Both the position numbers and the translations under genes were made by a program. 64,000 bases of DNA from NCBI GenBank assembly GCA_947650365.1, contig CANTAL010000140.1, forward strand, positions 372,001-436,000, written 5' to 3'. This stretch comes from Chamaelirium japonicum (taxonomy: Eukaryota; Streptophyta; Magnoliopsida; Liliales; Melanthiaceae). The notes below the pieces were generated by a model that saw only the letters and a program-made list of their open reading frames with translations, ran no database searches and was not told the DNA's origin. Below, piece after piece: positions 1 to 62,874 of the stretch. Each line of letters begins with the position of its first letter. Positions within the stretch are counted from its first letter, which is position 1.

Positions 1-290
1 TCGCACAATCCATTCTAATTCATTCGTACGATCCATTCTAATTCATTCGTACGATTCGTTCTAATTCATTCGCACAATCTATTCTAATTCATTCGTACGA
101 TCCATTCTAATTTATTCGCACGAACCATTCTAATTCATTCGTACGATCCATTCTAATTCATTCGCACAATCTATTATAATTCATTCGTACGATCCATTCT
201 AATTCATTTGCACGATCCATTCTAATTCATTCGTATGATACATTCTAATTCTTTCGTACGATCCGTTCTAATCTATTCTAATTCATTTGT
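1..290 (-). repeat. Satellite array, reverse orientation
   Basis: The same 23-bp satellite as the rest of the window, but reading as the reverse complement (CATTCTAATTCATTCG steps). About 12 monomers are present and the block continues beyond the left edge. The switch to forward orientation lies at a palindrome-like GTAC centre at 289-292, where a reverse unit runs directly into a forward unit. No gene is present. Confidence 0.95.
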
Positions 291-3200
291 ACGAATAAAT
301 TAGGATGGATATATTCGTGCGAACGAATTAGAATGGATCGTACGAATGAATTAGAATAGATCGTATGAATGAATTAGAATTGATCGTATGAATGAATTAG
401 AATGGATCGTACGAATGAATTAGAATGGATAGATTCGTGCGAACGAATTACAATGGATCGTACGAAGGAATTAGAATGGATCGTACGAATGAATTAGAAT
501 AGATACATTCATCCGATTGAATTAGAATGGATCGTATGAATGAATTAGAATGGATCGTACGAATGAACTAGAATGGATCGTGTGAATGAATTAGAATGGA
601 TCATACGAATGAATTAGAATGGATCGTGCGAATGAATTAGAATGGATCGTGCAAATGAATTTGAATTGATTGTACGAATGAATTAGAATAGATACATTCA
701 CACAAATGAATTAGAATGGATCATACGAATGAGTAAGAATGGATCGTACGAATGAATTAGAATGGATTGTAGGAATGAATTAGAATGGATCGTTCGAATG
801 AATTAGAATGGATCGTACGAATGAATTAGAATAGATTATGCGAATGAATTAGAATGGATCATACGAATGAATTAGAATGGATACATTCATGCGAATGAAT
901 TAGAATGGATCATATGAATGAATTAGAACGGATCGTATGAATGAATTTGAATGGATCGTACGAATAAATTAGAATAGATACATTCGTGCGAATGAATTAG
1001 AATGAATCGTACGAAGAAATTAGAATGGATCGTACAAATGAATTAGAATAGATATATTCGTGCGAATGAATTAGAATGGATCGTATGAATGAATTAGAAT
1101 GGATCGTACAAATGAATTAGAATGGATAATGCGAATGAATTAGAATGGATCGTACGAATGAATTAGAATGGATTGTATGAATGAATTAGAATGGATACAT
1201 TCATGCGAATGAATTAGAATGGATCGTCCGAATGTGTCAGAATGGATCGTACGAATGAATTAGAATGGATCGTACGAATGAATTAGAATGGATCGTACGA
1301 ATGAATTAGAATAGTTTGTGCGAATGAATTAGAATGGTTCGTATGAATGAATTAGAATGGATACATTCGTGCGAATGAATTAGAATGGATCGTATGAATG
1401 AATTAGAATGGATCGTATGAATGAATTAGAATAGATCGTACGAATAAATTAGAATGGATACATTCGTGCGAATGAATTAGTATGGATCGTACGAAGGAAT
1501 TAGAATGGATCGTACGAATGAATTAGAATACATACATTCGTGCAAATGAATTAGAATGGATCGTATGAATGAATTAGAATGTATCGTACGAATGAATTAG
1601 AATGGATTGTGCTAATGAATTAGAATCGACCGTACGAATGAATTAGAATGGATCGTACGAATGAATTACAATAGATCGTGCGAATGTAGTAGAATGGATT
1701 GTATGAATGAATTAGAATGGATACATTCGTGCAAGTGAATTAAAATGGATCATACAAATGAGTAAGAATGGATCATACGAATGATAATGGATCGTATGAA
1801 TGAATTAGAATGGATTGTACGAATGAATTAGAATGGTTCGTACGAATGAATTAGAATAGATTGTGCGAATGAATTAGAATGGATCGTACGAATGAATTAG
1901 AATGGATATATTCATGCAAATGAATTAGAATGGATCGTATGAATGAATTAGAATGTATCGTACGAATGAATTATAATGGATACATTCGTGCGAATGAATT
2001 AGAATAGATCGTACGAAGGAATTAGAATGGATCGTACGAATGAATTATAATGGAAACATTCGTGTGAATGAATTAGAATGGATCTTCTAAATGAATTAGA
2101 ATGGATCATATGAATGAATTAGAATGGATCATACGAATGAATTAGAATGGATCGTGCGAATGAACTAGAATAGATATATTCGTGCGAATGAATTAGATTA
2201 GATCGTATGAATAAATTAGAATAGATCGTACGAATGAATTAGAATGGATCGTACAAATGATTTAGAATGGATCGTACGAATATATTAGAACGGATCATTC
2301 AAATGAATTAGAATGGATCATGCGAATGAATTTGTATGGATTGTACGAATGAATTAGAATGGATACATTCATGCGAATGAATTAGAATGGATCATACGAA
2401 TGAGTAAGAATGGATCGTACGAATGAACTAGAATGGATCGTACGAATGAATTATAATGGAACATGCGAATGAATTATAATGGATCGTACGAATGAATTAG
2501 AATAGATTGTGCGAATGAATTAGAATGGATCGTACGAATGGATCATACGAATAAATTAGAATGGATACATTTGTGCGAATAAATTAGAATGGATCGTATA
2601 AATGAATTAGAATGGATCGTACGAATGATTTAGAATGGATCATACAAATGAATTAGAATGGATCGTACGAATGAATTAGAATGGATCGTACGAAGGAATT
2701 AGAATGGATCGTACAAACGAATTAGAATGGATACATTCGTGCGAATGAATTAGAATAGATCGTATGAATGAATTAGAAAGGATCGTGCGAATGAATTAGA
2801 ATGGATCGTACGAATGAGATAGAATGGATCGTATGAATGAATTAGAATGGATCGTGCGAATGAATTAGAATGGATTGTATGAATGAATTAGAATGGATAA
2901 ATTCGTGCGAATGAATTAGAATGGATCGTACGAATGTGTAAGATTGGATCGTACGAATGAATTAGAATGGATCGTACGAATGAATTAGAATGGATACATT
3001 CGTGCGAATGAATTAGAATGGATCGTATGAATGAATTAGAATGGATCGTACAAATGAATTAGAATGGATACATTCGTGTGAAAGAATTAGAATGGATCAT
3101 ACGAAGAAATTAGAATGGGTCGTACGAATGAATTAGAATGGATACATTCGTGCAAATGAATTAGAATGGATCGTATGAATGAATTAGAATGGATCGTACG

Positions 3201-5796
3201 AATGAATTAGAATGGATCGTGCGAATGAATTAGAATCGATCGTACGAATGAATTAGAATGGTTCGTACAAATGAATTAGAATGGATCATGCGAATGTGTT
3301 AGAATGGATTGTATGAATGAATTAGAATAGATATATTCGTGCGAGTGAATTAGAATGGATCGTACGAATGAGTACGAATGGATCGTATGAATGAATTAGA
3401 ATAGATCGTATGAATGAATTAGAATGGATTGTATGAATGAATTAGAATGGATCATACGAATGAATTAGAATAGATTGTGCGAATGAATTAGAATGGATCA
3501 TGCGAATGAATTAGAATGGATCGTACAAATGAATTAGAATGGATCGTATGAATGAATTAGAATGGATCGTATGAATGAATTATAATGGATACATTCGTGC
3601 GAATGAATTAGAAAAGATCGTACAAAGGAATTAGAATGGATCGTACGAATGAATTAGAATGGATACATTCGTGCGAATGAATTAGAATGGATCATATAAA
3701 TGAATTATAATGGATCGTATGAATGAAATAGAATGGATCATACGAATGAATAAGAATGGATCGTGCGAATGAATTAAAATGGATCGCACGAATGAATTAG
3801 AATGGATCATACGGATGAATTAGAATGAATCGTGTGAATGAATTAGAATGTATTATACGAATGAATTTGAATGGATACATTCGTGCGAATGAATTAGAAT
3901 GGATAGTACAAATGAGTAAGAATGGATCATACGAATGAATTAGAATGGATCGTACGAATGAATTAGAATGGATCGTGCGAAAGAATTAGAATGGATCGTA
4001 CGAATGAATTAAAATAGACTGTGCGAATGAATTAGAATGGGTCGTATGAATGAATTAGAATGGATACATTTGTGCGAATGAATTAGAATGGATCGTACGA
4101 ATGAATTAGAATGGATTAAATGAATGAATTAGAATGGATCGTACGAATCAATTATAATTGATATATTCATGCGAATGAATAAGAATGTATCGTACGAAGG
4201 AATTAGAATGGATTGTATGAATGAATTAGAATGGATACATTCGTATGAATGAATTAGAATGGATCTTACGAATGAATTAGAATGGATCGTGCGAATGAAT
4301 TGGAATGGATCGTGCGAATGAATTAGAATGGATCGTATGAATGAATTAGAAAGGATCGTGCAAATGAATTAGAATGGATTGTACGAATGAATTGGAATGG
4401 ATACATTCGTGTGAATGAATTAGAATGGATCCTACGAATGAGTAAGAATGGATCGTATGAATGAATTAGAATGGATCGTGCAAATGAATTAGAATGGATT
4501 GTACGAATGAATTAGAATAGATTGTGCGAATGAATTAGAATAGATCGTACGAATGAACTAGAATAGATACATTCGTCTGAATGAATTAGAGTGGATCGTA
4601 TGATTGAATTAGAATGGATCGTACAAAGGAATTAGAATGGATCGTAGGAATGAATTAGAATGGATACATTAGTGCGAATGAATTAGAATGGAGCGTATGA
4701 ATGAATTAGAATGAATCGTAGGAATGAATTAGAATAGATCATACGAATGAATTAGAATGGATCATACGAATGGGTTAGAATGGATCGTACGATTGAATTA
4801 GAATGGATCGTACGAATGAAGTAGAATCGATCGTATGAATGAATTAGAATGGATCGTGCGAATGAAATAGAATGGATTGTAAGAATAAATTAAAATGGAT
4901 ATATTCGTGCGAATGAATTAGAATGGATCATACGTATGAGTAAGAATGGATCGTACGAATAAATTAGAATGGATTGTACGAATGAATTAGAATAGATTGT
5001 GCGAATGAATTAAAATGGATCATATGAATGAATTAGAATGGATAGATTCGTGCGAATGAATTAGAATGAATCGTATGAATGAATTAGAATGGATCGTATA
5101 AATGAATTAGAATAGATCATACGAATGAATTAGAATGGATACATTCGTGCGAATGAATTAGAATGGATAGTACAAAGGAATTAGAATGGATCGTACGAAT
5201 GAATTGGAATGGATCGTACGAATGAATTAGAATGGATACATTCGTGCGAATGAATTAGAATGGATCGTACGAATTAATTAGAATGGATCGTGCAAATAAA
5301 TTAGAAAGGATCGTACGAATGAATTAAAATGGATCGTACGAATGAGTTAGAATGGATCGTGCAAATTAATTAGAATGGATTATACGAATGAATTAGAATG
5401 GATACATTCGTGCGATTGAATTAGAATGGATCGTACGAATGTGTAAGAATGGATCGTACGAATGAATTAGAATGGATCGTACGAATGAATTAGAATGGTT
5501 CGTACGAATGAATTAGAATAGATTGTGCGAATGAATTAGAATAGATCGTACGATGGAATTAGATTGGATCGTACGAATGAATTAGAATGGATACATTCGT
5601 GCGAATGAATTAGAATAGATGGTACGAATGAATTAGAATGGATCGTGTGAATAAATTAGAATGGATCGTACGAATGAATTAGAATAGATCGTTATAAAGA
5701 ATTAGAATGGATTGTACGAATGAATTAGAATGGATACATTCGTGTGAGTGAATTAGAATGGATCGTACGTATGGGTAAGAATGGATGATACGAATG

Positions 5797-6456
5797 AATT
5801 AGAATGGATCATACGAATGAATTAGAATGGATTGTACGAATGAATTAGAATGGATCGTACGAATGAATTCGAATAGATTGTGCGAATGAATTCGAATGGA
5901 TCGTACGAATGAATTACAATGGATACATTCGTGCAAATAAATTAGAATGGAACGTATGAATGAATTAGAATGGATCGTACGAATGAATTAGAATGGATAT
6001 ATTCGTGCGAATGAATTAGAATGGATCGTACGAATGAATTTGAATGGATACATTCGTGCGAATGAATTAGAATGGATCGTATGAAAGAATTAGAATGGAT
6101 TGATTGAATGAATTAGAATGGATCGTACGAATGAATTAGAATGGATCGTGCGAATGAATTAGGATGGATCGTACGAATGAATTAGAATAGATTGTGCGAA
6201 TGAATTAGAATGGATCGTACGAATGAATTAGAATGGATACATTCGTGCGAATGAATTACAATGGATCGTACGAAGGAATTAGAATGGATCGTACAAATGA
6301 ATTAGAATGGAAACATTCGTGCGAATGAATTAGAATGGATCGTATGAATGAATTAGAATGGATCGTGTGAATGAATTAGAATGGATCGTGTGAATGAACT
6401 AGAATGGATCATACGAATGAATTAGAATGGATCGTACGAATGAATTAGAATGGATC
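5797..6456 (+). repeat. Duplicated satellite block, copy 1
   Basis: About 660 bp that recurs nearly base for base at 7283-7942, an offset of 1486 bp. Shared rare variants include two GAATTCGAAT units, GAACGTATG, a GGATTGATTG unit, GAATTAGGATGG and a GGAAACATTCG 28-mer. One difference seen by eye is CATACG near 6411 against CATATG in the other copy. Boundaries are approximate. Confidence 0.8.
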
Positions 6457-7282
6457 GTGCGAATGAATTAGAATGGATTATACTAATGAATTTGAATAGA
6501 TACATTCGTACGAATGAATTAGAATGGATCGTACGAATGTGTAAGAACGAATCGTACGAATGAATTAGAATGGATCGTACGAATGAATTAGAATGGATCG
6601 TGCGAATGAATTAGAATAGATCGTTCGAATGAATTAGAATAAATTGTCCGAATGAATTAGAATGGATCGTACGAACGAATTAGAATGGATACATTCGTGC
6701 CAATGAATTAGAATGGATCGTATGAATGAATTAGAATAGATTATATGAATGAATTAGAATGGATCGTACGAATGAATTAGAATGGATACATTCGTATGAA
6801 TTAATAACAATAGATCGTAGGAAGGAAATAGAATGGATCGTACGAAAGAATTAGAATGGATACATTCGTGCAAATGAATTAGAATGGATCGTATGAATGA
6901 ATTAGAATGGATCGTACAAATGACTTAGAATGGATCGTGCGAATTAATTAGAATCGATCGTACGAATGAATTAGAATGGATCATACGAATGAAATAGAAT
7001 GGATCGTGTGAATGTATTAGAATGGATTGTATGAATGAATTAGAATGGATTGTACGAATGAATTAGAATAGATTGTGCGAATGAATTAGAATGGATCGTA
7101 CGAAAGAATTAGAATGTATACATTCATGCAAATTAATTAGAATATATTGTATGAATGAATTAGAATGGATCGTACGAATGAATTATAATGGATAAATTCG
7201 TGCGAATGAATTAGAATAGATCGTACGAAGGAATTAGAATGGATCGTACAAATGAATTCGAATGGATGCATTCGTGCGAAAG

Positions 7283-7942
7283 AATTAGAATGGATCATAC
7301 GAATGAATTAGAATGGATTGTACGAATGAATTAGAATGGATCGTACGAATGAATTCGAATAGATTGTGCGAATGAATTCGAATGGATCGTACGAATGAAT
7401 TACAATGGATACATTCGTGCAAATAAATTAGAATGGAACGTATGAATGAATTAGAATGGATCGTACGAATGAATTAGAATGGATATATTCGTGCGAATGA
7501 ATTAGAATGGATCGTACGAATGAATTTGAATGGATACATTCGTGCGAATGAATTAGAATGGATCGTATGAAAGAATTAGAATGGATTGATTGAATGAATT
7601 AGAATGGATCGTACGAATGAATTAGAATGGATCGTGCGAATGAATTAGGATGGATCGTACGAATGAATTAGAATAGATTGTGCGAATGAATTAGAATGGA
7701 TCGTACGAATGAATTAGAATGGATACATTCGTGCGAATGAATTACAATGGATCGTACGAAGGAATTAGAATGGATCGTACAAATGAATTAGAATGGAAAC
7801 ATTCGTGCGAATGAATTAGAATGGATCGTATGAATGAATTAGAATGGATCGTGTGAATGAATTAGAATGGATCGTGTGAATGAACTAGAATGGATCATAT
7901 GAATGAATTAGAATGGATCGTACGAATGAATTAGAATGGATC
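7283..7942 (+). repeat. Duplicated satellite block, copy 2
   Basis: Second copy of the 660-bp block at 5797-6456. The near identity, in an array whose neighbouring monomers differ at many positions, indicates a recent duplication, probably by unequal exchange. Confidence 0.8.
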
Positions 7943-10900
7943 GTGTGAATGAATTAGAATGTATTATACGAATGAAGCTGAATGGATACATTCGTGCGAA
8001 TGAATTAGAATGGATAGTACGAATGAGTAAGAATGGATCGTACGAATGAATTAGAATGGATTGTATGAATGAATTAGAATGGATCATGCAAAAGAATTAG
8101 AATGGATCATACGAATAAATTAAAATAGTTTGTGCGAATGAATTAGAATGGGTCGTATGAATGAATTAGAATGGATAAATTCGTGCGAATGAATTAGAAT
8201 GGATCATATGAATGAATTAGAATGGATTGAATGAATGAATTAGAATGGATCGTACGAATCAATTAGAATGGTTACATTCGTGCGAATGAATAAGAATGGA
8301 TCGTACGAAGAAATTAGTATGGATTGTATGAATGAATTAGAATGGATACATTCGTATGAATGAATTAGAATGGATCATACGAATGAATTATAATGGATTG
8401 TGCGAGTGAATTAGAATGGATCGTACGAATGAATTAGAATAGATTGTGTGAATGAATTAGAATGGATCGTACAAATGAATTAGAATGGATACATTCGTGC
8501 GAATGAATTAGAATGGATCGAATGAACTAATTCGAATGGATCTTATGAATGAATTAGAATGGATATATTCGTGCGAATGAATTAGAATGGATCGTATGAA
8601 GGAATTAGAATGGATAGTAGGAATGAATTAGAATGGATTCATTCATGCGAATGAATTTGAATGGATCGTATAAATGAATTAGAATGGATCGTGCGAATTA
8701 ATTAGAATGGATTGTACGAATGAATTAAAATGGATACATTCGTGCGAATGAATTAGAATGGATCGTACATATGAGTATGAATGGATCGTACGAATGAATT
8801 AGAATGGATTATACAAATGAATTAGAATAGAGTGTGCGAATGAATTAGAATGGATCATACGAATGAATTAGAATGGATAGATTCATGCGAATGAATTAGA
8901 ATGGATCGTAAGAATGAATTAGAATCGATCGTATGAATGAATTAGAATAGATCGTACGAATGAATTAGAATGGATACATTCGTGCGAATGAATTAGAATG
9001 GATAGTACGAAGGAATTAGAATGGATCGTACGAATGAATTAGAATGGATACATTCGTGCAAATTAATTAGAATGGATCATACGAATGAATTAGAATGGAT
9101 CGTGAAAATAAATTAGAATGGATCGTATGAATGAATTAGAATGGATCTTATTAATGAATTAGAATGGATCGTGCGAATGAATTAGAATGGAATGTACGAA
9201 TGAATTAGAATGGATACATTCATGCGAATGAATTAGAATGGATCATACGAATGTGTAAGAATGGATCGTGTGAATGAATTAGAATGGATCGTGCGAATGA
9301 ATTAGAATGGATTGTACGAATGAATTAGAATAGATTGTGCGAATGAATTAGATTGGATCGTACGAATAAATTAGAATGCAAACATTCGTGCGAATGAATT
9401 AGAATGGATCGCATGAATGAATTAGAATGGATCGTATGAATGAATTTGAATGGATCGTACGAATGAATTAGAATGGATACATTTGTGTGAATGAATTAGA
9501 ATGGATCGTACGAAGGAATTAGATTGGATACGAATGAATTAGAATGGATACATTCGTGCGAATGAATTAGAATAGATCGTACGAATAAATTAGAATGGAT
9601 CGTACGAATGAATTAGAATGGATCGTCCGAATGAATTTGAAAGGATCGTACGAATGAATTATAATGGATCATTATAATGAATTAGAATGGATTGTACGAA
9701 TGAATTAGAATGGATACATTCGTTCGAGTGAATCAGAATACATCGTACGTATGGGTAAGAATGGATCGTAGAATAAATTAGAATGGATCGTACGAATGAA
9801 TTAGAATGGATTGTACGAATGAATTAGAATGGATCATACGAATGAATTTGAAGAGATTGTGCGAATGAATTAGAATGGATCGTACGAATGAATTAGAATG
9901 GATACATTCGTGCAAATGAATTAGAATGGAACGTATGAACGAATTAGAATGGATCGTACGAATGAATTAGAATGGATACATTCGTGCGAATGAATTAGAA
10001 TGGATCGTACGAAGGGATTCAAATGGATCGTAAGAATGAATTTGAATGGATACATTCGTGCGAATGAATTAGAATGGATCGTATGAAAGCATTAGAATAG
10101 ATTTAATGAATGAATTAGAATGGATCGTAGGAATGAATTAGAATGGATCGTGCAAATGAATTAGAATGGATCGTACGAATAAATTAGAATAGATTGTGCG
10201 AATGAAATAGAATGGATCGTACGAATGAATTAGAATGTATATATTCGTGTGAATGAATTAGAATGGATCGTATGAATGAATTAGAATGGATCGTTTGAAT
10301 GAATTAGAATTGATCGTACGAATGAATTAGAATGGATAAATTCGTGCGAATGTACTAGAATGGATTGTATGAATGAATTAGAATGGATACATTCATGCGA
10401 GTGAATTAGAATGGATCGTACGAATGAGTAAGAATAGATCGTACGAATGAATTAGAATGGATCGTATGAATGAATTAGAATGGATTATATTAATGAATTA
10501 GAATGGATCGTACGAATGAATTAGAATAGATTGTGCGAATGAATTAGAATGGATCGTACGAATGAATTAGAATGGATACATTCGTGCAAATTAATTAGAA
10601 TGGTTCGTATGAATAAAGTAGAATTGATCGTACGAATGAATTATAGTGGATACATTCGTGCGAATGAATTAGAATAGATCATACGAAGGAATTAGAATGG
10701 ATCATAAAGATTAATTAGAACGGATCGTACGGATGAATTAGAATGGATCGTGCGAATGAATTAGAATGGATTGTACGAATGAATTTGAAAGGATACATCC
10801 GTGCGAATGAATTAGAATGGATCGTATGAATGAATTAGAATAGATTGAATGAATGAATTAGAATGGATCATACGAATGAATTAGAATGGATACATTCGTG

Positions 10901-13900
10901 CGAATGAATAAGAATGGATCGTACGAAGGAATAAGAATGGATCGTATGAATGAATTAAAATGGATACATTAGTATGATTGAATTAGAATGGATCATACGA
11001 ATGAATCAGAATTTTTCGTACGAATGAATTAGAATGGATCGTACGAATGAATTAGAATGGATCGTGCGAATGAATTAGAATGGATTGTACAAATGAATTA
11101 TAATGGATACATTCATGTGAATGAATTAGAATGGATCGTACGAATGAATTAGAATGGATCGTGCAAATGAATTAGAATAGATTGTGCGAATGAATTAGAA
11201 TGGATCATACGAATGAATTAGAATTAATCGTACGAATGAATTAGAATGGACCGTGCGAATGAATTAGAATGGATCGTATAAATGAATTAGAATAGATTGT
11301 GTGAATGAATTAGAATGGATCATACGAATTAATTACAATGGATACATTCGTGCGAATGAATTAGAATGGATCGTATGAATGAATTAGAATGGATCGTACG
11401 AATGAATTCGAATGGATACATTCGTGCGAATGAATTAGAATGGATCGTACGAAGGAATTAGAATGGATCGTACGAATGAATTAGAATGGATACATTCGTG
11501 CGAATGAATTAGAATGGATCGTATGAATGAATTAGAATGTATCGTATGAATGAATTAGAATGGATCATGCGAATGAATTAGAATGGATTGTACGAATGAA
11601 TTAGAATGGATCGTGCGAATGAATTAGAATGGATTATACGAATGAATTAGAATGGATACATTCGTGCAAATGAATTAGAATGGATTGTACGAATGAGTAA
11701 GAATGGATCGTATGAATGAATTAGAATGGATCGTACGAGTGAATTAGAATGGATCGTGCGAATGAATTAGAACAGATCATACGAATGAATTAGAATAGAT
11801 TTTGCGAATGAATTAGAATGGATAGATTCATGCGAATGAATTAGAATGTATCGTATGAATGAATTAGAATGGATCGTATGAATAAATTAGAATAGATCGT
11901 ACGAATGAATTAGAATGGATACATTCGTGCGAATTAATTAGAATAGATAGTACGAAGGAATTAGAATGGATCGTATGAATGAATTAGAATGGATACATTC
12001 GTGCGAATGAATTTGAATAGATCCTACGAATGAATTAGAATGGATCATGCGAATGAATTAGAATGGATCGTACGAATGAATTAGAATGGATCGAATTAAT
12101 GAATTAGAACGGATCGTGCGAATGAATTAGAATGGATTGTACGAATGAATTAGAATGGATACATTCGTGCGAATGAATTAGAATGTATCGTACGAATGTG
12201 TAAGAATGGATCGTACGAATGAATTAGAATGGATCGTACGAATGAATTAGAATGGATCGTGCGAATAAATTAGAATGGATCGTACGAATTAAGTAGAATA
12301 GATTGTGTGAATGAATTAGAATGGATCATACGAATGAATTAGAATATGTATATTCGTGCGAATGAATTAGAATGGATAGCTTGAATGAATTAGAATGGAT
12401 CGTGTGAATGAATTATAATGGATCGTACGAATGAACTAGAATGGATACATTCGTACGAATGAATTAGAATGGATTGTACGAAGGAATTAGATCGGATCGT
12501 ACGAATGAATTAGAATGGATACATTCGTGCGAATGAATTAGAATAGATCGTACGAATGAATTAGAATGGATCGTACGAACGAATTAGAATGGATCGTGCG
12601 AATGAATTAGAATGGATCGTACAAATTACTTAGAACATATCGTGCGAATGAATTAGAATGGATTGTACGAATGAATTAGAATAGATACATTTGTGCGAGT
12701 GAATTAGAATGGATTATACGAATGAGTAACAATGGATTGTACGAATGAATGAGAATGGATCGTACAAATGAATTAGAAAGGATTGTACGAATGAATTAGA
12801 ATGGATCGTACGAATAAATTAGAATAGATTGTGCGAATAAATTCGAATGGATCGTACGAATGAATTAGAATGGATATATTCATGCAAAGGAATTAGAATG
12901 GAACGTATGAATGAATTAGAATGGATTGTATGAATGAATTAGAATGGATACATTCGTGCGAATGAATTAGAATGGATCGTACGAAGGAATTAGAATGGAT
13001 CGTACGAATGAATTAGAATAGAGACATTCGTGCGAATGAATTAGAATGGATCGTATGAATGAATTAGAATGGATTGTTTGAATGAATTAGAATGGATCGT
13101 ACGAATGAATTAGAATGGATCGTGCAAATGAATTAGAATGGATCGTACGAATGAATTAGAATAGATTATGCTAATGAATTAGAATGGATCGTACGAATGA
13201 ATTAGAATGGATAATTCGTGTGAATGAATTAGAATGGATCATTTGAATGAATTAGAATGGATCGTTCGAATGAATTAGAATGGTTCGTACAAAGGAATCA
13301 GAATAGTTCGTACGAATGAATTAGAATGGATACATTCGTGCAAATGAATTAGAATGGATCGTATGAAGGAATTAGAATGGATCATACGAATTAATTAGAA
13401 TGGATCGTGCAGATGAATTAGAATGGATCGTGCTAATGAATTAGAATGGATCGTACATATGAATTAGAATGGATTGTACTAATGAATTAGAATGGATACA
13501 TTCGTGCAAATGAATTAGAATGGATCGTATGAATGAGTAAGAATGGATCGTACGTATGAATTAGAATGGATCGTACGAATGAATTAAAATGGATTGTGCG
13601 AATGAATTAGAATGGATCGTATGAATGAATTAGAATAGATTGTGTGAATGAATTAGAATGGATCATATGAATGAATTAGAATGGATCGTATAAATGAATT
13701 AGAATGGATCGTATGAATGAATTCGAATGGATCGTATGAATCAATTAGAATGGGTTATACGAATGAATTAGAATTGATACATTCGTGCGAATGAATTAGA
13801 ATGGATCGTACGAATGAATTAGAATGGATCGTACGAACGAATTAGAATGGATCGTACAAATGAATTAGATTGGATCGTACGAATGAATTAAAATAGATCG

Positions 13901-44733: not shown

Positions 44734-44735
44734 TG

Positions 44736-50753: not shown

Positions 50754-50761
50754 TATTTATA
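50754..50761 (-). promoter_or_regulatory. TATA box of the antisense gene
   Basis: TATAAATA on the minus strand, 100 bp upstream of the ATG at 50654, a normal spacing for a plant promoter with a short leader. The leader contains a C13 tract on the plus strand (about 50735-50747). With the start codon and the intron, this indicates a separate minus-strand transcription unit inside the element. Confidence 0.6.
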
Positions 50762-50762
50762 G

Positions 50763-51070
50763 GCAGGCGAGAGGCGGGTGAATCGGGCCGCAGTTAATGC
50801 CCGAGCGCGCCCGACGAGGCGACGTGACGGTTGTTGAAGCGACAGCTCGCTTCTTTCCAGTAACGAAGCGCCACGTGGGCCACGCGTGGAAAAGGCTGCG
50901 CCGGCATCGAAGCTGTCCTTTACTGACAGAAAGAGGAGCAAATTAGAGCACGACATGTGTACCACGCTGATCGAGATCTCATGATGAGATTCATTGTATC
51001 AGTTTCATATCTCGAGTCTCGGGCCGCATTTAAGATGAAACGACCGTCGGAGATTTGGAGCGATACCCAA
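50763..51070. other. Spacer upstream of the antisense promoter
   Basis: About 300 bp of unique sequence with no gene seen. It would hold upstream control sequences of the antisense gene, but I cannot point to any. Confidence 0.4.
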
Positions 51071-51460
51071 GTCACAAGATCGCCCATGGCAGGTCCCCGT
51101 AGCTCGCCCGAAGTAGACCCTGACCGCGTGTGGCAAGCTCGCACCGGAAGGAGATCGCTCGTGGCTGATGCTCCCGAAGCGCCCGGCGTTTGTGAAATAC
51201 TGGGTGTCAAAACTCTCGGCGAAGATCGCCCATGGCAGGTCCCCGCAGCTCGCCCGAAGTAGACCCTGACCGCGTGTGGCAAGCTCGCACCGGAAGGAGA
51301 TCGCTCGTGGCTGATGCTCCCGAACCGCTCGGCGTTTATGAAATACTGGGTGTCAAAACTCTCGGCGCAGATCACCCACGGCAGGTGCCCGCAGCTCACA
51401 GGATGGAGGACGCCAATGAATGGTGCTCTCAGTCCGCCCGGCGTGGGCAATAAGACTCCT
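51071..51460 (+). repeat. ~146-bp tandem repeat next to the PPT
   Basis: About 2.5 copies. The landmark CGCCCATGGC or CACCCACGGC occurs at 51081, 51228 and 51373, giving periods of 147 and 145 bp; the last copy is cut short. Each copy contains AGCTCGCCC blocks like those of the LTR minisatellite. Seen from the antisense gene it lies 300-700 bp upstream of its TATA box. Confidence 0.85.
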
Positions 51461-51494
51461 GAGCAAGCGTCAAAGTTTCCTTGGTGGCTCCCTC

Positions 51495-51506
51495 AGGAGG
51501 GGGTAA
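51495..51506 (+). promoter_or_regulatory. Polypurine tract of element 1
   Basis: AGGAGGGGG followed by TAA directly before the TGTTGG start of the 3' LTR. This is the expected place and composition for the primer of plus-strand DNA synthesis. Confidence 0.85.
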
Positions 51507-52656
51507 TGTTGGTGGTAGCTGAAATCCGTCCAGAAGTTGGAACCCTTATCCGTATGAGCTCGATCGAACGGCTATCAGGAGCGAGATCCACATTGGGATG
51601 CACGGGGACCTGGTATCTGAGTGCATTACATCTACAGCTCGGTGAATCGCAAGGAGCTCGCCCCAGCTCGCAAAGGAGCTCGCCCCCCAGCTCGCAAAAG
51701 AGCTCGCCCCCCAGCTCGCAAAAGAGCTCGCCTCCCAGCTCACATGGAGCTCGCAAGAAGCTCGCCCCCTAGCTCGCAAGGAGCTCGCCCCTAGCTCGCC
51801 AGGAGCCCGCCTCCAAGCTCGCCAAGAGCTCACCCCTAGCTCTGCGCGCTCGCCACCAGCTCGCCCTTGCCTATGGATCTCATAGACCCCAGGATTCCAA
51901 GGGATGGGGAACTCACGCAGGGGCGCGCCTTCGTCCCCCAGCTCGCAAGGAGCTCGCCCCCCCCCCCCCCCCCCCAAGCTCACCAAATCATCTTAACAGG
52001 GAGCGAGATCCACATTGGGCTGAATGGACCTTTGTGCTTCTTGGTACAATACATCTAAGCTCGGTAAATTGCTTAGACAAAGAGCTCGTTCAGAAGCTAG
52101 CCCAAGCTCGCTCAGGAGCTCGCCCAAGCTCGCCCAGGAGCTCGCCCCAAGCTCGCCGAGACTCCCCTGTTTATCGAAGAGGTCGCTCCCGCGAGGTCCG
52201 ACTCTTGATAGATATGGAGGAGAAGACGGAGCAACGGAGGGCGAGCTCGCCTTTGCTTCCCCCCTGAGGTCGCCCACAATAGAGCAACATAAAGGGCTGC
52301 CAGGTGTCGAAACCTCACTGAAGCTACGTGGACAATTGCAGTCCACGGAAGCCCGCCTGAGTCGGTTAGATGCTCTCCCCCACTCAAACCGCCTGGCAGG
52401 CTAGACGATAAAGAATGTCAGGGGCACGAGTTCCAAAGACCGTCAGAGACCCACGCGAGCCAGAACGTGGGGGCCTAGAAGTCGCTGGAAAGAACCTCCA
52501 CGTGTTGGGCAACGGTAGGTCGCCAATGTCTATAAATACCCCCCCCAGGCTCCAAAGTACAGGTTGGAAACCCTCACCATTATCATTTTTTCTTACGTCC
52601 ACACTCCATCAATCACTTGAGACTGACTTGAGCGTCGGAGGGTCTGCGTTCCGTAG
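51507..52656 (+). repeat. 3' LTR of element 1, lacking its last 74 bp
   Basis: Starts TGTTGG and follows the 5' LTR to CCGTAG (52651-52656, partner 41230-41235), then passes directly into satellite. The final 74 bp, including the CCAACA terminus, are missing. TATA box at 52531-52538, C19 run at 51957-51975, and AGCTCGC minisatellite at about 51652-51860 with more copies than in the 5' LTR. Confidence 0.93.
52531..52538 (+). promoter_or_regulatory. TATA box of 3' LTR
   Basis: TATAAATA, same position as 41109-41116 in the 5' LTR. It could in principle drive read-out transcription into the neighbouring satellite. Confidence 0.6.
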
Positions 52657-55600
52657 AATGGATAGTACGAATGAATTAGAAAGGATACATTCGTACGAAT
52701 GAACTAGAATAACTCGTACGAATGAATTAGAATGGATCGTTCGAATGAATTAGAATGGATCGTACGAATGAATTAGAATTGATCGTGCGAATGAATTTGA
52801 ATGGATTGTACGAATGAATTAGAATGGATACATTCGTACGAATAAACTAGAATAGATCGTGAGAATGAATTAGAATAGATCGTACGAATGAATTAGAATG
52901 GATCATGTGAATGAATTAGAATGGATCTTACAAATGAATTAGAATGGATACATTCGTGCTAATGAATTAGAATAGCTCGTACGAATAAATAAGAATAGAT
53001 CGTGCGAATGAATTAGAATGGATCATACGAATGAATTAGAATGGATCGTGTGAATGAATTAGAATAGATCGTACGAATGAATCAGAATGGATACATTCGT
53101 ACGAATGAATTAGAATAGCTCGTACGAATGAATTAGAATAGATCGTGCGAATTAATTAGAATGGATCGTACGAATGAATTATAATGGATCGTGTGAATGA
53201 ATTAGAATGGATCGTAGGAATGAATTAGAATGGATACATTCGTACGAATGAATTATAATAGTTCGTACGAATGAATTAGAATAGATCGTGCAAATAATTT
53301 ATAATGGATCGTACGATTGAATTATAATGGATCGTACGAATGAATTAGAATGCATACATTAGTACGAATAAATTAGAATAGCTCGTACGAATGAATTAGA
53401 ATGGATCGTGCGAATAAATAGAATGGATCGTAGGAATGAATTAGAATGAATCGTGCGAATGAATTAGAATGGATCGTATGAATGAATTAGAATGGATACA
53501 TTCGTACGAATGAATTAGAATAGCTCGTACGAATAAATTAGAATAGATCGTATGAATGAATTAGAATGGATCGTTCGAATAAATTAGAATGGACCGTAAG
53601 AATGAATTAGAATAGATACATTCGTATGAATGAATTCTATAGCTAATACGAATGAATTAGAATGGATCGTGCAAATGAATTAGACTAGATCGTTCGAATG
53701 AATTAGAATGGATCGTTCGAATGAATTAGAATGTATCGTACGAATGAATTAGAATGGATACATTTGTACGAATGAATTAAAATAGCTCGTACGAATGAAT
53801 TAGAATGGATCGTGCGAATGAATTAGAATGGATCGTACGAGTGAATTAGAATGGATCATACGAATGAATTTGAATAGATCGTGCGAATGAATTAGAATGG
53901 ATCATACGAATGAAATAGAATGTATCGTACGAATGAATTAGAATGTGTCGTACGAATGAATTAGAATGGATACATTCGTACGAATGAATTAGAATAGCTC
54001 GTACGAATGAATTAGAATAGATCGTGTGAATAAATTAGAATGGATCGTATGAATGAATTAGAATGGATCGTACGAATGAATTTGAATGGATCGTGCAAAT
54101 GAATTAAAATGGGTCATACGAATGAATTAGAATGGATATATTCGTACGAATGAATTAGAATAGCTCATACAAATGAATTTGAATAGATCGTGTGAATGAA
54201 TTAGAATGGATCGTACGAACGAATTAGAATGGATCGTGCGAATGAATTAAAATGGATCGTACGAATAAATTAGAATGGATATATTTGTACGAATGAATTA
54301 GAATAGCTCGTGCGAATGAAGTAGAATAGATCGTGCAAATGAATTAGAATGGATCGTACGAATCAATTAAAATGGATCATGCAAATGAATTAGAATGGAT
54401 CGTACTAACAAATTATAATGGATACATTCATACGAATGAATTAGAATAGCTCATACGAATGAATTATAACGGATCATGGAAATGAATTAGAATGGATCGT
54501 GCGATTGAATTAGAATAGATCATGCGAATGAATTAGAATGGATCGTACGAATGAATTAGAATGGATACATTTGTACGAATGAATTAGAATAGGTCGTACG
54601 AATAAATTAGAATAGATCGTGCGAATGAATTAGAATGAATCGTACGAATGAATTAGAATAGATCGTGCGAATGAATTACAATGGATCATACGAATGAATT
54701 ACAATGGATACATTCGTACGAAAGAATTGGAATAGCTCGTACGAATGAATTAGAATCGATCGTGCGAATGAATTAGAATGGATCTTACGAATGAATTAGA
54801 ATGGATCGTGCGATAGAATTAGAATGGATCTTACGAATGAATTAGAATGGATACATTCGTACGAATGAATTAGAATAGCTCGTACGAATGAATTAGAATA
54901 GATCTTGTAAATGAATTAGATTGGATTGTACAAATGAATTAGAATGGATCGTGCGAATGAATTTGAATGGATCGTACGAATGAATTAGAATGGATATATT
55001 CATACGGATGAATTAGAATAGCTCATACAAATGAATTAGAATAGATCGTGCGAAAAAATTAGTATGGATCGTACGAATGAATTATAATGGATCGTGCGAA
55101 TGAATTAGAATGGATCGTACGAATGAATTAGAATTGATACATTCATAAGAGTAGCTCGTACGAATGAATTAGAATAGATCGTGTGAATGAATTAGAATGG
55201 ATCGTGTGAATAAATTAGAATGGATCGTACGAATGAATTAGAATTGGTACATTCGTACGAATGAATTAGAATAGCTCATACGAATGAATTAGAATAGATC
55301 GTGCAAATGAATTAGAATGGATCACACGAATGAATTAGAATGGATCCTGCAAATGAAGTAGAATAGATCGTATAAATGAAGTAGAATGGGTCGTACGAAT
55401 GATTTAGAATGGATCGTAGGAATGAATTATAATAGCTCGTACGAATGAATTAGACATTCATACGAATGAATTAGAATAGATCGTATGAATGATTAGAATA
55501 GATCGTGCGAATGAATTAGAATGGACCGAACGAATGAATTAGAATAGATCGTGCGAATGTATTAGAATGGATCGTACGAATGAATTAGAATGGATCGTAC

Positions 55601-57801
55601 GAATGAATTTGAATAGATCGTCCGAATGAATTAGAATGGATCGTACGAATGAATTAAAATGGATCGTGCGAATGAATTAGAATGGATCGTACAAATGAAT
55701 TAGAATGGATACATTCGACGAATGAATTAGAATAGATCATGCGAATGAATTAGAATGGATCTATGAATGAATTAGAATGAATCATCCAAATGAATTAGAA
55801 TGGATCGTACGAATGAATTAGAAAGGATACATTCGTACGAATGAATTAGAATAACTCGTACGAATGAATTAGAATGGATCTTTCGAAAGAATTAGAATGG
55901 ATCATACGAATGAATTAGAATTGATCGTGCGAATGAATTACAATGGATCGTACGAATGAATTAGAATGGATACATTCGTACGAATAAATTAGAATAGATC
56001 GTGAGAATGAATTAGAATAGATCGTACGAATGAATTAGAATGGATCATGCGAATGAATTAGGATGGATCTTACAAAATGAATTAGAATGGATACATTCGT
56101 ACTAATGAATTACAATAGCTTGTACGAATGAATCAGAATAGATCATGCGAATGAATTAGAATGGATCATACGAATGAATTAGAATGGATCGTGTGAATGA
56201 ATTAGAATAGATCGTACGAATGAATCAGAATGGATACATTCGTACGAATGAATTAAAATAGCTCGTATGAATGAATTCGAATAGATCGTGCGAATGAATT
56301 AGAATGGATCGTGCAAATGAATTAGAATGGATCATACGAATGAATTAGAATGGATTGTGCGAATGTATTAGAATGCATCGTACAAATGAATTAGAATAGA
56401 TACATTCGTATGGATGAATTAGAATAGCTCGTATGAATGAATTAGAATAGATCGGGCGAATAAATTTGAATGGATCGTACAAATGAATTAGAATGAATCG
56501 TATGAACGAATTAGAATAGCTCATACGAATGAATTGAAATGGATCGTACGAATGAATTAGAATAGATTAATTCATACGAATGAATTAGAATGGATCGTGC
56601 GAATGAATTAGAATGGATCGTACGAATGAATTATAATAGATCATGAGAATGAATTTGAATGGATCTTGCGAATGAATTAGAATGGATCGTGCGAATGAAT
56701 TAGAATGGATCATATGAATAAATTAGAATTGCTGAATTAGAATAGATCGTGCGAATGAATTAGAATGGATCGTACGAATAAATTAGAATGGATCATGTGA
56801 ATGAATTAGAATGGATCGTACGAAGGAATTAGAATGGATACATTCGTACGAATGAATTAGAATAGCTTATATGAATGAAATAAAGTGGATTGTGCGAATA
56901 AATTAGAATGGATCACACGAATGAATTAAAATGAATCGTGCAATGAATTAGAATGGATCGTACGAATGAATTAGAATGGATACATTCGTAAGAATGAATT
57001 ATAATGGATCGTACGAGTGAATTAGAATGGATACATTTGTAAGAATGAATTAGAATGGATCGTACGAATAAATTAGAATGGATACATTCGTACGAGTGAA
57101 TTAGAATAGCTTGTACGAATAAAGTAGAATAGATCATGCGAATAAATTAGAATGGATCATACGAATTAATTAGAATGGATCGTGCTAATGAATTAGAATG
57201 GATCGAACGAATGAATTAGAATAGCTTGTACGAATGAATTAGAATAGATCGTGCGAATGAATAAAAAGGGATCGTACGAATGAATTAGAATAGATCGTGC
57301 GAATAAATTAGAATGGATCGTACGATTGAATTAGAATGGATCGTACGAATGAATTAGAATAGATCTTGCGAATGTATTAGAATGGATCATACAAATGAAT
57401 TAGAATAGATACATTCGTACAAATAAATAAGAATAGATCGTGTGAATGAATTAGAATGGATCGTACGAATTAAATAGAATGGATCGTGTGAATGAATTAG
57501 AATGGATCGTACAAATGAATTAGAATGGATACATTCGAACGAATGAATTAGAATAGCTCGTATGAATGAATTAGAATGGATCCTGCGAATGAATTAGAAT
57601 GGATCGTACGAATGAATTAGAATGGATGCATTCGTACGAATGAATTAGAATAGCTCGTACGAATGAATTTGAATAGATCGTGTGAATGAATTAGAATGAA
57701 TCGTACGAATTAATTAGAATGGATCGTACGAATGAATTAGAATGGATACATTCGTACGAATGAATTAGAATAGCTCATACGAATGAATTAGAGTAGATCG
57801 T
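52657..57801 (+). repeat. Satellite array, family 2, middle part
   Basis: Forward 23/28-bp monomers with CATTCGTAC and AGCTCGTAC types. A higher-order repeat is marked by GAAAGGATAC at 52679 and 55821 (then 59238 and 62426), by ACATTCATAAGAG near 55139, and by a truncated unit ATTAGACATTCATACG near 55452. Within a period, 28-mers recur every five or six monomers. The left border is the microhomology junction with the truncated LTR. Confidence 0.92.
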
Positions 57802-57990
57802 ACGATCCATTCTAATTCATTCGCACGATCCATTCTAATTCATTCGTATGATCCATTCTAGTTTATTCGCACGATCTATTCTAATTTATTCGTATGAGCT
57901 ATCCTAATTCATTCGTATGAATGTGTCCATTCTAATTCATTCGAACGATCCATTCTAATTCGTTCGTACGATCCATTCTAATTTATTCGT
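57802..57990 (-). repeat. Inverted satellite block (189 bp)
   Basis: Eight or so monomers in reverse orientation within the forward array. Both borders fall at CGTACG centres: GATCGTACGATC at 57796-57807 on the left and ATTCGTACGATTT at about 57986-57998 on the right. The higher-order period that contains it is about 230-275 bp longer than its neighbours, so the block looks inserted and not simply flipped. Confidence 0.85.
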
Positions 57991-60900
57991 ACGATTTAAT
58001 TAGAATGGATCGTGCGAATGAATTAGAATGGATCGTACGAATGAATTAGAATAGCTCGTGCGAATGAATTAGAATGAATCGTACTAATTAATTAGAATGG
58101 ATCATGCGAATGAATTAGAATGGGTCGTACGAATGAATTAGAATGGATACATTCATACGAATGAATTAGAATAGCTCGTACGGATGAATTAGAAAAGATC
58201 GTGCAAATGAATTAGAATAGATAATGCGAATGAATTAGAATGGATCGTGTGAATGAACTAAAATGGATATATTCGTATGAATGAATTAGAATAGCTCATA
58301 CGAATGAATTAGAATAGATCGTGCAAATGAATTAGAATGGATCGTACGAATGAATTAGAAAGGATTGTGCGAATGAATTAGAATGGATCGTACGAATGAA
58401 TTAGAATGGATACATTCGTACGAATAAATTAGAATAGCTCATACGAATGAATTAGAATAGATCGTGCTAATGAATTAGAATGGATCGTACGAATGAATTA
58501 GAATGGATCGTGCGAATGAATTAGAATGGATCGTACGAATGAATTAGAATGGATACATTCATAAGAGTAGCTCGTACGAATGAATTAGAATAGATCGTGT
58601 GAATCAATTAGAATGGATCTTGTGAATAAATTAGAATGGATCGTATGAATGAATTCGAATTGATACATTCGTACGAATGAATTAGAATAGCTCATATGAA
58701 TGAATTAGAATAGATCGTGCGAATGAATAAGAATGGATCACACGAATGAATTAGAATGGATCATGCAAATGAAGTAGAATAGATCGTACAAATAAAGTAG
58801 AATGGGTCGTACGAATGATTTAGAATGGATCGTACGAATGAATTAGAATAGTTCGTACGAATGAATTAGACATTCATACGAATGAATTAGAATAGCTCGT
58901 ACGAATGATTAGAATAGATCGTGCGAATGAATTAGAATGGATCGAACAAATAAATTAGAATAGATCGTGCGAATGAATTAGAATGGATCATACGAATGAA
59001 TTAGAATGGATCGTACGAATGAATTTGAATAGATCGTCCGAATGAATTAGAATGGATCGTACGAATGAATTAGAATGGATCGTGCGAATGAATTAGAATA
59101 GATCGTACGAATAAATTAGAATGGATACATTCGACGAATGAATTAGAATTGATCATGCGAATGAATTAGAATGCATCATATGAATGAATTAGAATGAATC
59201 GTGCGAATGAATTAGAATGGATCATACGAATGAATTAGAAAGGATATATTTGTACGAATGAATTAGAATAACTCGTACGAATGAATTAGAATGGATCGTT
59301 CGAATGAATTAGAATGGATCGTACGAATGAATTAGAATTGATCGTGCGAATGAATTAGAATGGATTGTAGGAATGAATTAGAATGGACACATTCATACGA
59401 ATAAATTAGAATAGATCGTGAGAATGAATTAGAATAGATCGTACGAATGAATTAGAATGGATCATGCGAATGAATTAGAATGGATCTTACAAATGAATTA
59501 GAATGGATACATTCGTGCTAATGAATTAGAATAGCTAATACGAATAAATAAGAATAGATCGTGCGAATGAATTAGAATGGATCATACGAATGAATTAGAA
59601 TGGATCATGTGAATGAATTAGAATAGATCGTACGAATGAATCAGAATGGATACATTCGTACGAATGAATTAGAATAGCTCGTACGAATGAATTAGAATGG
59701 ATCGTACGAATGAATTAGAATGGATCGTGCAAATAAATTAGAACGGATCGTACGAATGAATTAGAACGGATACATTCGTACGAATGAATTATAATAGTTC
59801 GTACGAATGAATTAGAATAGATCGTGCAAATAATTTATAATGGATCGTACGATTGAATTATAATGGATCGTACGAATGAATTAGAATGCATACATTAGTA
59901 CGAATGAATTAGAATAGCTCGTACGAATGAATTAGAATGGATCGTGCGAATCAATAGAATGGATCGTAGGAATGAATTAGAATGAATCGTGCGAATGAAT
60001 TAGAATGGATCGTACGAATGAATAAGAATGGATACATTCGTACGAATGAATTAGAATAGCTCGTACAAATAAATTAGAATAGATCGTATGAATGAATTAG
60101 AATGGATCGTGCGAATAAATTAGAATGGACCGTAAGAATGAATGAGAATAGATACATTCATATGAATGAATTCTATAGCTCATACGAATGAATTAGAATG
60201 GATCGTGCGAATGAATTAGAATAGATCCTTCGAATGAATTAAAATAGATCGTTCAAATGAATTAGAATGTATCGTACGAATGAATTAGAATGGATACATT
60301 TGTACGAATGAATTAGAATAGCTCGTATGAATGAATTAGGATTGATCGTTCGAACGAATTAGAATAGATCGTACGAGTGAATTAGAATGGAACGTACGAA
60401 TGAATTTGAATAGATCGTGCGAATGAATTAGAATGGATCGAACGAATAAATTAGAATGTATCGTACGAATGAATTAGAATGTGTCGTAAGAATGAATTAG
60501 AATAAATGCATTCGTACGAATGAATTAGAATAGCTCGTACGAATGAATTAGAATAGATCGTGCGAATGAATTAGAATGGATCGTATGAATGAATTAGAAT
60601 GGATCGTACGAATGAATTTGAATGGATCGTGCAACTGAATTAAAATGGATCATACGAATAAATTAGATTGGATATATTCGTACGAATGAATTAGAATAGC
60701 TCGTACAAATGAATTTGAATAGATCGTGTGAATGAATTAGAATGGATCGTACGAACGAATTAGAATGGATCGTGCGAATGGATTAGAATGGATCGTACGA
60801 ATAAATTAGAATGGATACATTTGTACGAATGAATTAGAATAGCTCGTGCGAATGAATTATAATGGATCATGCAAATGAATTAGAATGGATCGTACGAATC

Positions 60901-62841
60901 AATTAGAATGGATCATGCAAATGAATTAGAAAGGATCGTACTAATAAATTAGAATGGATACATTCATAATAATGAATTAGAATAGCTCATACGAATGAAT
61001 TATAATGGATCATGGAAATGAATTAGAATGGATCGTACGAATGAATTAGAATGGATCGTGCGATTGAATTAGAATGGATCATGCGAATGAATTAGAATGG
61101 ATCGTACGAATGAATTAGAATGGATTGTGCAAATTAATTAGAATGGATCGTACGAATGAATTAGAATGGATACATTCGTACGAATGAACTAGAATAGGTC
61201 GTACGAATAAATTAAAATAGATCGTGCGAATGAATTAGAATGAATCGTAGGAATGAATTAGAATGGATCGTGCGAATGAATTAGAATGGATCATACGAAT
61301 GAATTAGAATTGATACATTCGTACGAATGAATTGGAATAGCTCGTACGAATGAATTAGAATCGATCGTGCGAATGAATTAGAATGGATCTTACGAATGAA
61401 TTAGAATGGATCGTGCGAATGAATTAGAATGGATCTTACGAATGAATTAGAATGGATACATTCGTACGAATGAATTAGAATAGCTCGTACGAATGAATTA
61501 GAATAGATCGTGCAAATGAATTAGATTGGATCGTACAAATGAATTAGAATGGATCGTGCGAATGAATTTGAATGGATCGTACGAATGAATTAGAATGGAT
61601 ATATTCATACGAATGAATTAGAATAGCTCATACAAATGAATTAGAATAGATCATGCGAAAGAATTAGTATGGATCGTACGAATGAATTAGAATGGATCGT
61701 GTGAATGAATTAGAATGGATCAGACGAATGAATTAGAATGGATACATTCATAAGAGTAGCTCGTACGAATGAATTAGAATAGATCGTGTGAATGAATTAG
61801 AATGGATCGTGTGAATAAATTAGAATGGATTGTACGAATGAATTAGAATTGGTACATTCGTACGAATGAATTAGAATAGCTCATACGAATGAATTAGAAT
61901 AGATCGTGCGAATGAATTAGAATGGATCACATGAATGAATTAGAATGGATCGTGCAAATGAAGTAGAATAGATCGTATAAACGAAGTAGAATGGGTCGTA
62001 CGAATGATTTAGAATGGATCGTACGAATGAATTAGAATAGCTCGTACGAATGAATTAGACATTCATACGAATGAATTATAATAGCTCGTACGAATGATTA
62101 GAATAGATCGTGCGAATGAATTAGAATGGATCAAATGAATGAATTAGAATAGATCGTGCGAATGAATTAGAATGGATCGTACGAATGAATTAGAATGGAT
62201 CGTACGAATGAATTTGAATAGATCGTCCGAATGAATTAGAATGGATCGTACGAATGAATTAAAATGGATCATGCGAATGAATTAGAATGGATCGTACGAA
62301 TGAATTAGAATGGATACATTCGACGAATGAATTAGAAAAGATCATGCGAATGAATTAGAATGGATCTATGAATGAATTAGAATGAATCGTGCAAATGAAT
62401 TAGAATGGATCGTACGAATGAATTAGAAAGGATACATTCGTACGAATGAATTAGAATAACTCGTACGAATAAATTAGAATGGATCTTTCGAATGAATTAG
62501 AATGGATCGTACGAATGAATTAGAATTGATCGTGCGAATGAATTACAATGGATCGTACGAATGAATTAGAATGGATACATTCGTACGAATAAATTAGAAT
62601 AAATCGTGAGAATGAATTAGAATAGATCGTACGAATGAATTAGAATGGATCATGCGAATGAATTAGAATGGATCTTACGAATGAATTAGAATGGATACAT
62701 TCGTACTAATGAATTAGAATAGCTCGTACGAGTGAATAAGAATAGATCGTGCGAATGAATTAGAATGGATCATACGAATGAATTAGAATGGATCGTGTGA
62801 ATGAATTAGAATAGATCGTACGAATGAATCAGAATGGATAC
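57991..62841 (+). repeat. Satellite array, family 2, right part
   Basis: Continues the 3.2-kb higher-order repeat: ACATTCATAAGAG near 58555 and 61744, GAAAGGAT at 59238 and 62426, ATTAGACATTCATACG near 58868 and 62055, TGAATTCTAT at 60167 (partner 53631). It ends at GGATAC, where element 2 starts inside what would be a 28-bp unit. Confidence 0.92.
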
Positions 62842-62874
62842 TGTGGGTGCAAATTTTGGCAAGAAGTCTGCAAA

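What the first reader, a model, noticed from the sequence alone, without database searches (positions are those of the whole stretch)
1..62841. Satellite with 23-bp and 28-bp monomers and layered higher-order structure
About 50 kb of array is built from two monomer lengths that differ by a 5-bp ACATT insertion. The 28-mers recur every few monomers, blocks of monomers recur at 1.5-5 kb, and one block recurs at 12.2 kb. I do not recognise this satellite; its length, uniform orientation and hierarchy resemble centromeric or knob-type heterochromatin, but location cannot be judged here.
Basis: partly seen in the sequence, partly recalled or inferred. Interest (0 to 1): 0.75.

Follow-up and report, generated by a model that had tools for sequence, protein, structure and literature searches.

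The report
Known Chionographis centromere satellite, transposon-interrupted
This stretch most likely consists of a repeat already published as the centromere DNA of the plant Chionographis japonica, whose chromosomes carry centromeres along their whole length; here it is interrupted by jumping genes, and the repeat itself is not new.

Summary
The array is real: 2,121 monomers, 1,742 exactly 23 bp and 318 exactly 28 bp, with recurring blocks longer than monomer-order shuffles give. It is very probably not unknown. It fits the text description of Chio1/Chio2, the CENH3-associated satellite of holocentric Chionographis japonica: 23/28-bp monomers, a 5-bp plus one-substitution difference (first array only), three dyads in the 23-mer, an 8-bp hairpin between neighbours, the 9-mer TTCGTACGA, mixed orientation, higher-order repeats. 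The published letters themselves could not be compared. Corrections to the finding: bases 1-~290 are inverted, and 40106-52656 is a broken Tat-clade retrotransposon; a probable second LTR starts at 62842, so the array is interrupted there. Local detail: two subfamilies meet near 38.4 kb; the retrotransposon lost 74 bp of its 3' LTR and about 590 bp of satellite with it; CpG columns diverge more than other columns on average; the hairpin arms show little sign of compensatory change. Species and CENH3 occupancy could not be tested. Already known; low interest.

The parts
1..290 (-). Satellite array in reverse orientation, 12 monomers, cut by the window edge
   Evidence: best other match in the window is reverse-strand, 26664-26395 at 91.9%
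287..294 (.). Head-to-head orientation switch inside the near-palindromic core (TTGTACGA here, consensus TCGTACGA)
   Evidence: read directly from the sequence; one junction only
291..38399 (+). Chio-type satellite, subfamily I (28-class with G at the variable core position in 235 of 258); 23-mers and 28-mers mixed, blocks recurring at 1.5-5 kb and 12.2 kb
16993..22724 (+). Block that recurs 12.2 kb downstream at 29237-34951 (two aligned pieces, 96.5% and 95.2%)
   Evidence: shuffle control
38400..40105 (+). Satellite subfamily II (28-class with A at that position in 70 of 72; AGCT/AACT-type 23-mers), both pieces counted together
   Evidence: log-odds switch near 38.4 kb; counts
40106..52656 (+). 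Ty3/gypsy LTR retrotransposon, Tat clade (Ogre/Retand type), inserted in the array; reverse transcriptase region broken; 3' LTR truncated
   Evidence: LTR pair; RNase H, second RNase H, integrase; RT; frames
40106..41309 (+). 5' LTR (TGTTGG...CCCAACA), followed by a primer-binding-site-like TTTGGCGCCG
   Evidence: read directly
44323..44736 (+). Reverse transcriptase piece; preceded by an in-frame stop and followed by a change of frame
   Evidence: Pfam RVT_1, E 6.5e-24; frames
44679..47111 (+). Open frame with RT-associated RNase H, second RNase H (RVT_3), integrase zinc-binding and integrase core domains
   Evidence: Pfam
51507..52656 (+). 3' LTR lacking its last 74 bp; joined to satellite at a shared TAG
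   Evidence: 97.1% identical to the 5' LTR over 1,126 aligned sites
52657..62841 (+). Satellite subfamily II continued; units recurring at about 3.1-3.4 and 6.5-6.6 kb
62842..63530 (+). Probable 5' LTR (TGTGGG...CCCACA) of a second retrotransposon, followed by a primer-binding-site-like GTTTGGCGCCG; runs off the window
   Evidence: read directly; no second LTR copy in the window to confirm it

Best explanation
The array is part of a Chio1/Chio2 satellite block of Chionographis japonica or a close relative: DNA on which CENH3 nucleosomes and kinetochores assemble in the few megabase-sized centromere units of its holocentric chromosomes. Shown here: the sequence anatomy. Taken from the papers: CENH3 enrichment and chromosomal position. 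[quoted passage not shown] Also inferred: the array grew by amplification of multi-monomer blocks (unequal exchange or conversion), collected CpG-type transitions, and was hit by LTR retrotransposons, one of which was later trimmed by a deletion that also took neighbouring satellite.
For: Published text: 23-bp Chio1 and 28-bp Chio2; Chio1 has a 5-bp deletion and a 1-bp substitution relative to Chio2; three dyads in Chio1; an 8-bp dyad forming a hairpin between neighbouring monomers; higher-order cluster CL73; mixed forward and reverse arrays. A later paper (passages): the 23-bp Chio monomer holds the 9-mer TTCGTACGA. Window: first-array consensus GGATCGTACGAATGAATTAGAAT and GGATACATTCGTGCGAATGAATTAGAAT, exactly 5 bp plus one substitution; three perfect palindromes of at least 4 bp in the 23-mer (GATC, TCGTACGA, AATT), and the 9-mer on the reverse strand; a 23-mer dimer folds as DNA into the 8-bp hairpin between monomers, -6.8 kcal/mol, z -3.28, 1 of 200 shuffles as good; inverted segment; higher-order blocks. 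The inserted element has RNase H, second RNase H, then integrase, the order reported for Ogre/Retand elements of angiosperms (passages), so the host is probably a flowering plant.
Against: No letter-by-letter comparison with the published monomers was possible: they stand in a figure and a supplement that I could not read, six fragments of the consensus found no paper, and the own-genome search did not complete. Second-array 28-mers lack the substitution. The paper's four dyads of Chio2 were not reproduced: one perfect palindrome (first array) or two (second array), plus near-dyads. Of two real 141-bp stretches folded, one was clearly more stable than shuffles (z -3.10) and one only weakly (z -1.84, 8 of 200 as good); single 28-mers gave z -1.5 and -1.4.
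Confidence: 0.93

Rival explanations
1. A different, undescribed satellite of another plant that by coincidence has 23- and 28-bp monomers.
For: The published monomer letters could not be read, and six fragments of the consensus were in no paper of the library.
Against: Both lengths, the 5-bp plus one-substitution relation, the 9-mer, three dyads in the 23-mer, the 8-bp hairpin between monomers, mixed orientation and higher-order repeats all agree.
Confidence: 0.05
2. A Chio satellite of a sister species (for example another Chionographis), not of C. japonica itself. This overlaps with the best explanation, which allows a close relative.
For: The window bears no species label; second-array 28-mers lack the published substitution.
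Against: Nothing tested here tells species apart. Chamaelirium luteum is unlikely: its centromeric satellite is a 60-bp repeat, in arrays said to hold no retrotransposons.
Confidence: 0.15
3. A block of the same satellite that is not CENH3-bound and is kept only by amplification. This overlaps with the best explanation as to identity.
For: LTR insertions, CpG-rich divergence and longest blocks only about 95-96% identical suggest a stretch not recently homogenised; Chio1 and CENH3 signals overlap only about 65%.
Against: The paper reports that CENH3-enriched sites coincide with Chio arrays, and a uniform spread of LTR elements in (peri)centromeric and intercentromeric regions.
Confidence: 0.25
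4. Assembly artefact: recurring blocks, the inversion or the truncated LTR made by misassembly of repeats.
For: Satellite arrays are hard to assemble, and no reads were available.
Against: The longest recurring blocks differ at several percent, so they are not one stretch used twice; the LTR breakpoint shows a 3-bp microhomology, as a real deletion would.
Confidence: 0.04

Closest known systems
Chio1/Chio2 centromeric satellite of Chionographis japonica (Kuo et al. 2023, PMC10264360)
   Same: 23- and 28-bp monomers, 5-bp plus one-substitution relation, 8-bp hairpin-forming dyad, mixed orientation, higher-order repeats
   Different: second-array 28-mers lack the substitution; published letters not compared directly
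Chama 60-bp centromeric satellite of Chamaelirium luteum (Kuo et al. 2025, PMC12722358)
   Same: shares the 9-mer TTCGTACGA with the 23-mer
   Different: 60-bp monomer; arrays reported as consistently oriented and not interspersed with retrotransposons
Ogre/Retand clades of Tat Ty3/gypsy retrotransposons (PMC6317226; passages read)
   Same: second RNase H between the first RNase H and integrase
   Different: this copy has a broken RT region and a truncated 3' LTR

Membership tests
Chio1/Chio2 satellite | monomers of 23 and 28 bp, intermingled | tested here: met
   1,742 of 2,121 monomers exactly 23 bp, 318 exactly 28 bp
Chio1/Chio2 satellite | Chio1 = Chio2 minus 5 bp with one substitution | tested here: met
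   exact in the first-array consensus; in the second array 5 bp only, no substitution
Chio1/Chio2 satellite | 23-mer holds TTCGTACGA | tested here: met
   present on the reverse strand of the 23-mer consensus; stated
Chio1/Chio2 satellite | three dyads in Chio1, an 8-bp dyad pairing between neighbouring monomers | tested here: met
   GATC, TCGTACGA, AATT (the paper's own criterion for a dyad is not known); dimer hairpin of 8 bp
Chio1/Chio2 satellite | four dyads in Chio2 | tested here: inconclusive
   one (first array) or two (second array) perfect palindromes plus near-dyads; the paper's criterion is not known
Chio1/Chio2 satellite | mixture of forward and reverse arrays | tested here: met
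   1-~290 reversed, the rest forward; one switch only
Chio1/Chio2 satellite | higher-order repeat forms | tested here: met
   recurring blocks beyond shuffles
Chio1/Chio2 satellite | CENH3 enrichment; about 16% of the genome | not testable with these tools
   no ChIP data; own-genome search unanswered
Chio1/Chio2 satellite | letters of the published consensus | not testable with these tools
   in a figure and a supplement, neither readable; no text copy found
Tat (Ogre/Retand) LTR retrotransposon | second RNase H between the first RNase H and integrase | tested here: met
   RT_RNaseH_2 78-176, RVT_3 273-390, rve 556-652 of one frame
Tat (Ogre/Retand) LTR retrotransposon | paired LTRs with target-site duplication | tested here: inconclusive
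   LTRs 97.1% identical; the 3' LTR end is missing, so no duplication can be seen

The most novel reading that the evidence does not exclude
The self-complementary core TCGTACGA is less a conserved centromere hairpin than a recombination seam: the one orientation switch in the window falls inside it, its CpGs decay freely, and its arms show little sign of compensatory change. The frequent forward/reverse alternation of Chio arrays would then come from recombination at this palindrome.
Probability: 0.2. Interest if true: 0.4.

Novelty: already known. Interest (0 to 1): 0.2.

Why it matters
It ties an anonymous window to one of the few holocentromeres built from large satellite blocks, and takes a supposed unknown satellite off the list. 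[quoted passage not shown] In this one window, sequence constraint lends it little support.

Tried and rejected
Hairpin under selection: over the whole 8-mer, arm complementarity is 0.7467 and 0.7662 within monomers and 0.7469 and 0.7663 between adjacent monomers, against 0.7451 (sd 0.0016) and 0.7657 (sd 0.0025) in random pairs. Pair by pair on distinct monomers, 8 tests: one lies above its shuffles (outermost pair, second array, 0.929 against 0.921, sd 0.003, where neither of 2 double mutants is complementary), one below (innermost pair, second array, 0.535 against 0.563, sd 0.013), the rest within 2 sd. At pair 5-8, double mutants are often complementary (0.71 of 34 and 0.58 of 12), but G-to-A and C-to-T are the main changes at those columns, so that is expected. 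A perfect TCGTACGA survives in 0.333 of 1,410 and 0.314 of 369 23-class monomers. The shuffles do not allow for relatedness. Not supported, not excluded.

28-mers as a nucleosome-scale ruler: the commonest nearest spacings are 74, 189, 166, 97 and 143 bp in the first array but 143 and 120 bp in the second; no common register, dropped.

A first log-odds search for the subfamily boundary used a faulty pseudocount and gave 40035; the corrected run gave 38399. My note put the LTR start at 40107; reading the bases gives 40106. A search for papers with both monomer lengths as words found none.

Full report
What is there. The window holds about 50.3 kb of satellite in two pieces, 1-40105 and about 52657-62841. 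A string decomposition with a 23-bp and a 28-bp unit gave 2,121 monomers: 1,742 of exactly 23 bp, 318 of exactly 28 bp and 61 of other lengths. The first-array consensus is GGATCGTACGAATGAATTAGAAT for the 23-mer and GGATACATTCGTGCGAATGAATTAGAAT for the 28-mer: an ACATT insertion plus one substitution. In the second array the 28-mer has the insertion alone.

Orientation. It is not: bases 1 to about 290 are reversed; their best other matches in the window (seven shown besides itself) are reverse-strand copies between 26.3 and 34.8 kb. The switch falls inside TTGTACGA at 287-294, a one-base variant of the self-complementary core TCGTACGA. With one junction this shows no trend.

Hierarchy. Blocks of at least 300 bp and 90% identity number 540 in the first array and 27 in the second, the longest 3,348 and 1,804 bp. 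Five monomer-order shuffles of each gave 66-158 and 0-2 blocks, the longest 716 and 354 bp, so in the first array only the longer blocks are safe evidence. The 12.2-kb recurrence is real (16993-20340 with 29237-32584 at 96.5%; 19989-22724 with 32210-34951 at 95.2%) and shows also as the top monomer lag, 520. The second array recurs at about 3.1-3.4 and 6.5-6.6 kb (top lag 280). In the first array no two 28-class monomers are adjacent (0 of 267 spacings, about 43 expected), and spacings of 3, 7 and 8 monomers exceed the geometric expectation (75, 33 and 49 against 30.1, 15.0 and 12.6); the second array has one adjacent pair.

Two subfamilies. A corrected log-odds scan puts a switch near 38.4 kb: mean score -2.23 per monomer before, +2.63 after, +2.69 in the second array. 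Split there, 235 of 258 28-class monomers of subfamily I have G at the variable core position and 70 of 72 of subfamily II have A; AGCT/AACT-type 23-mers number 0 of 1,348 in I and 65 of 431 in II. Mean pair identity between I and II (0.842) is like that within each (0.859, 0.835), so they are variants of one satellite. The scan was trained on parts of the same two arrays, so the split is descriptive.

The interruption. 40106-52656 is an LTR retrotransposon. Its 5' LTR (40106-41309) and 3' LTR (51507-52656) are 97.1% identical over 1,126 aligned sites (25 transitions, 8 transversions, 26 gap columns); K2P 0.030, or 1.15 million years at 1.3e-8 per site per year and 2.14 million at 7e-9 (both rates recalled). 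One frame (44679-47111) holds an RT-associated RNase H, a second RNase H (RVT_3) and integrase domains. Two RNase H domains are reported as unique to the Tat lineage, and this position as that of Ogre and Retand elements of angiosperms (PMC6317226, passages). The reverse transcriptase lies in 44323-44736 (RVT_1, E 6.5e-24, matching only the profile's later part, 68-203 of 205), after an in-frame stop and before a change of frame, so this copy is probably inactive. The stretch before the stop gave no Pfam match. The 3' LTR lacks its last 74 bp. Array copies that match the two flanks lie 591 bp apart in two places (flank ends at 55205 and 55796, and at 61810 and 62401, 94-97% identical) and about as far in a third, where the upstream flank matches at only 88% (58619 and 59213). 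So about 590 bp of satellite are missing too (or that plus whole repeat units), and the join shares TAG. The simplest reading is insertion into a ready-made array, then one microhomology deletion. A probable second LTR begins at 62842 (to 63530, then GTTTGGCGCCG); whether satellite goes on beyond cannot be seen.

What it is. Chionographis japonica has holocentromeres made of a few megabase-sized units of Chio1 and Chio2, 23 and 28 bp (PMC10264360: abstract; sections 8, 14, 29 and 47; passages). [quoted passage not shown] A second paper says that the 23-bp Chio monomer shares TTCGTACGA with the Chama satellite (PMC12722358: abstract, passages, sections 8 and 33). The window meets the length, indel, 9-mer, three-dyad, hairpin, orientation and hierarchy tests. 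It does not clearly show four dyads in the 28-mer, and the second-array 28-mer lacks the substitution. The published letters could not be compared: figures and supplements are not open to me, and a text search for six fragments found no paper. A search on the names Chio1 and Chio2 listed four papers: these two, a review (listing only) and an unrelated one on snow flies.

How it works. The papers show CENH3 on Chio arrays; that this stretch is bound is inference. The sequence suggests growth by block amplification and decay by CpG transitions: in 23-class monomers the four CpG columns differ from the consensus at 0.179 (first array) and 0.153 (second), the other 19 columns at 0.061 and 0.095; 855 of 1,007 and 171 of 226 changes in CpG columns are C-to-T or G-to-A. 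Against a pure CpG story, two non-CpG columns are as variable (column 0: 0.166 and 0.425; column 7: 0.262 and 0.390); without them the others average 0.043 and 0.058. Cytosine methylation was not measured. The 8-bp hairpin forms in the folded dimer, but its arms are no more complementary within or between neighbouring monomers than in random pairs (single-pair results in Tried and rejected), so constraint lends it little support here.

Verdict. An already known satellite with high probability. Interest 0.2.

Noticed in passing
47246-47713: A 78-bp tandem repeat, about 4-5 copies, downstream of the integrase frame inside the retrotransposon.
   Followed up: no
48473-50577: Five overlapping minus-strand open frames of 195-417 aa between integrase and 3' LTR; the three scanned gave no Pfam match. 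Possibly the antisense extra ORF of some Tat elements (recalled trait).
   Followed up: partly
51076-51367: A 146-bp direct duplication (97%) just before the 3' LTR.
   Followed up: no
40246-40735 and 51647-52157: GC-rich short repeats built on AGCTCGCC within both LTRs.
   Followed up: no
62874-63082: GC-rich tandem repeats (43- and 53-bp units) inside the probable second LTR.
   Followed up: no
290-40106: Adjacent monomers are slightly less alike than random pairs (0.8517 against 0.8583, sd 0.0008), perhaps a by-product of higher-order units; not seen in the second array (0.8348 against 0.8341).
   Followed up: partly
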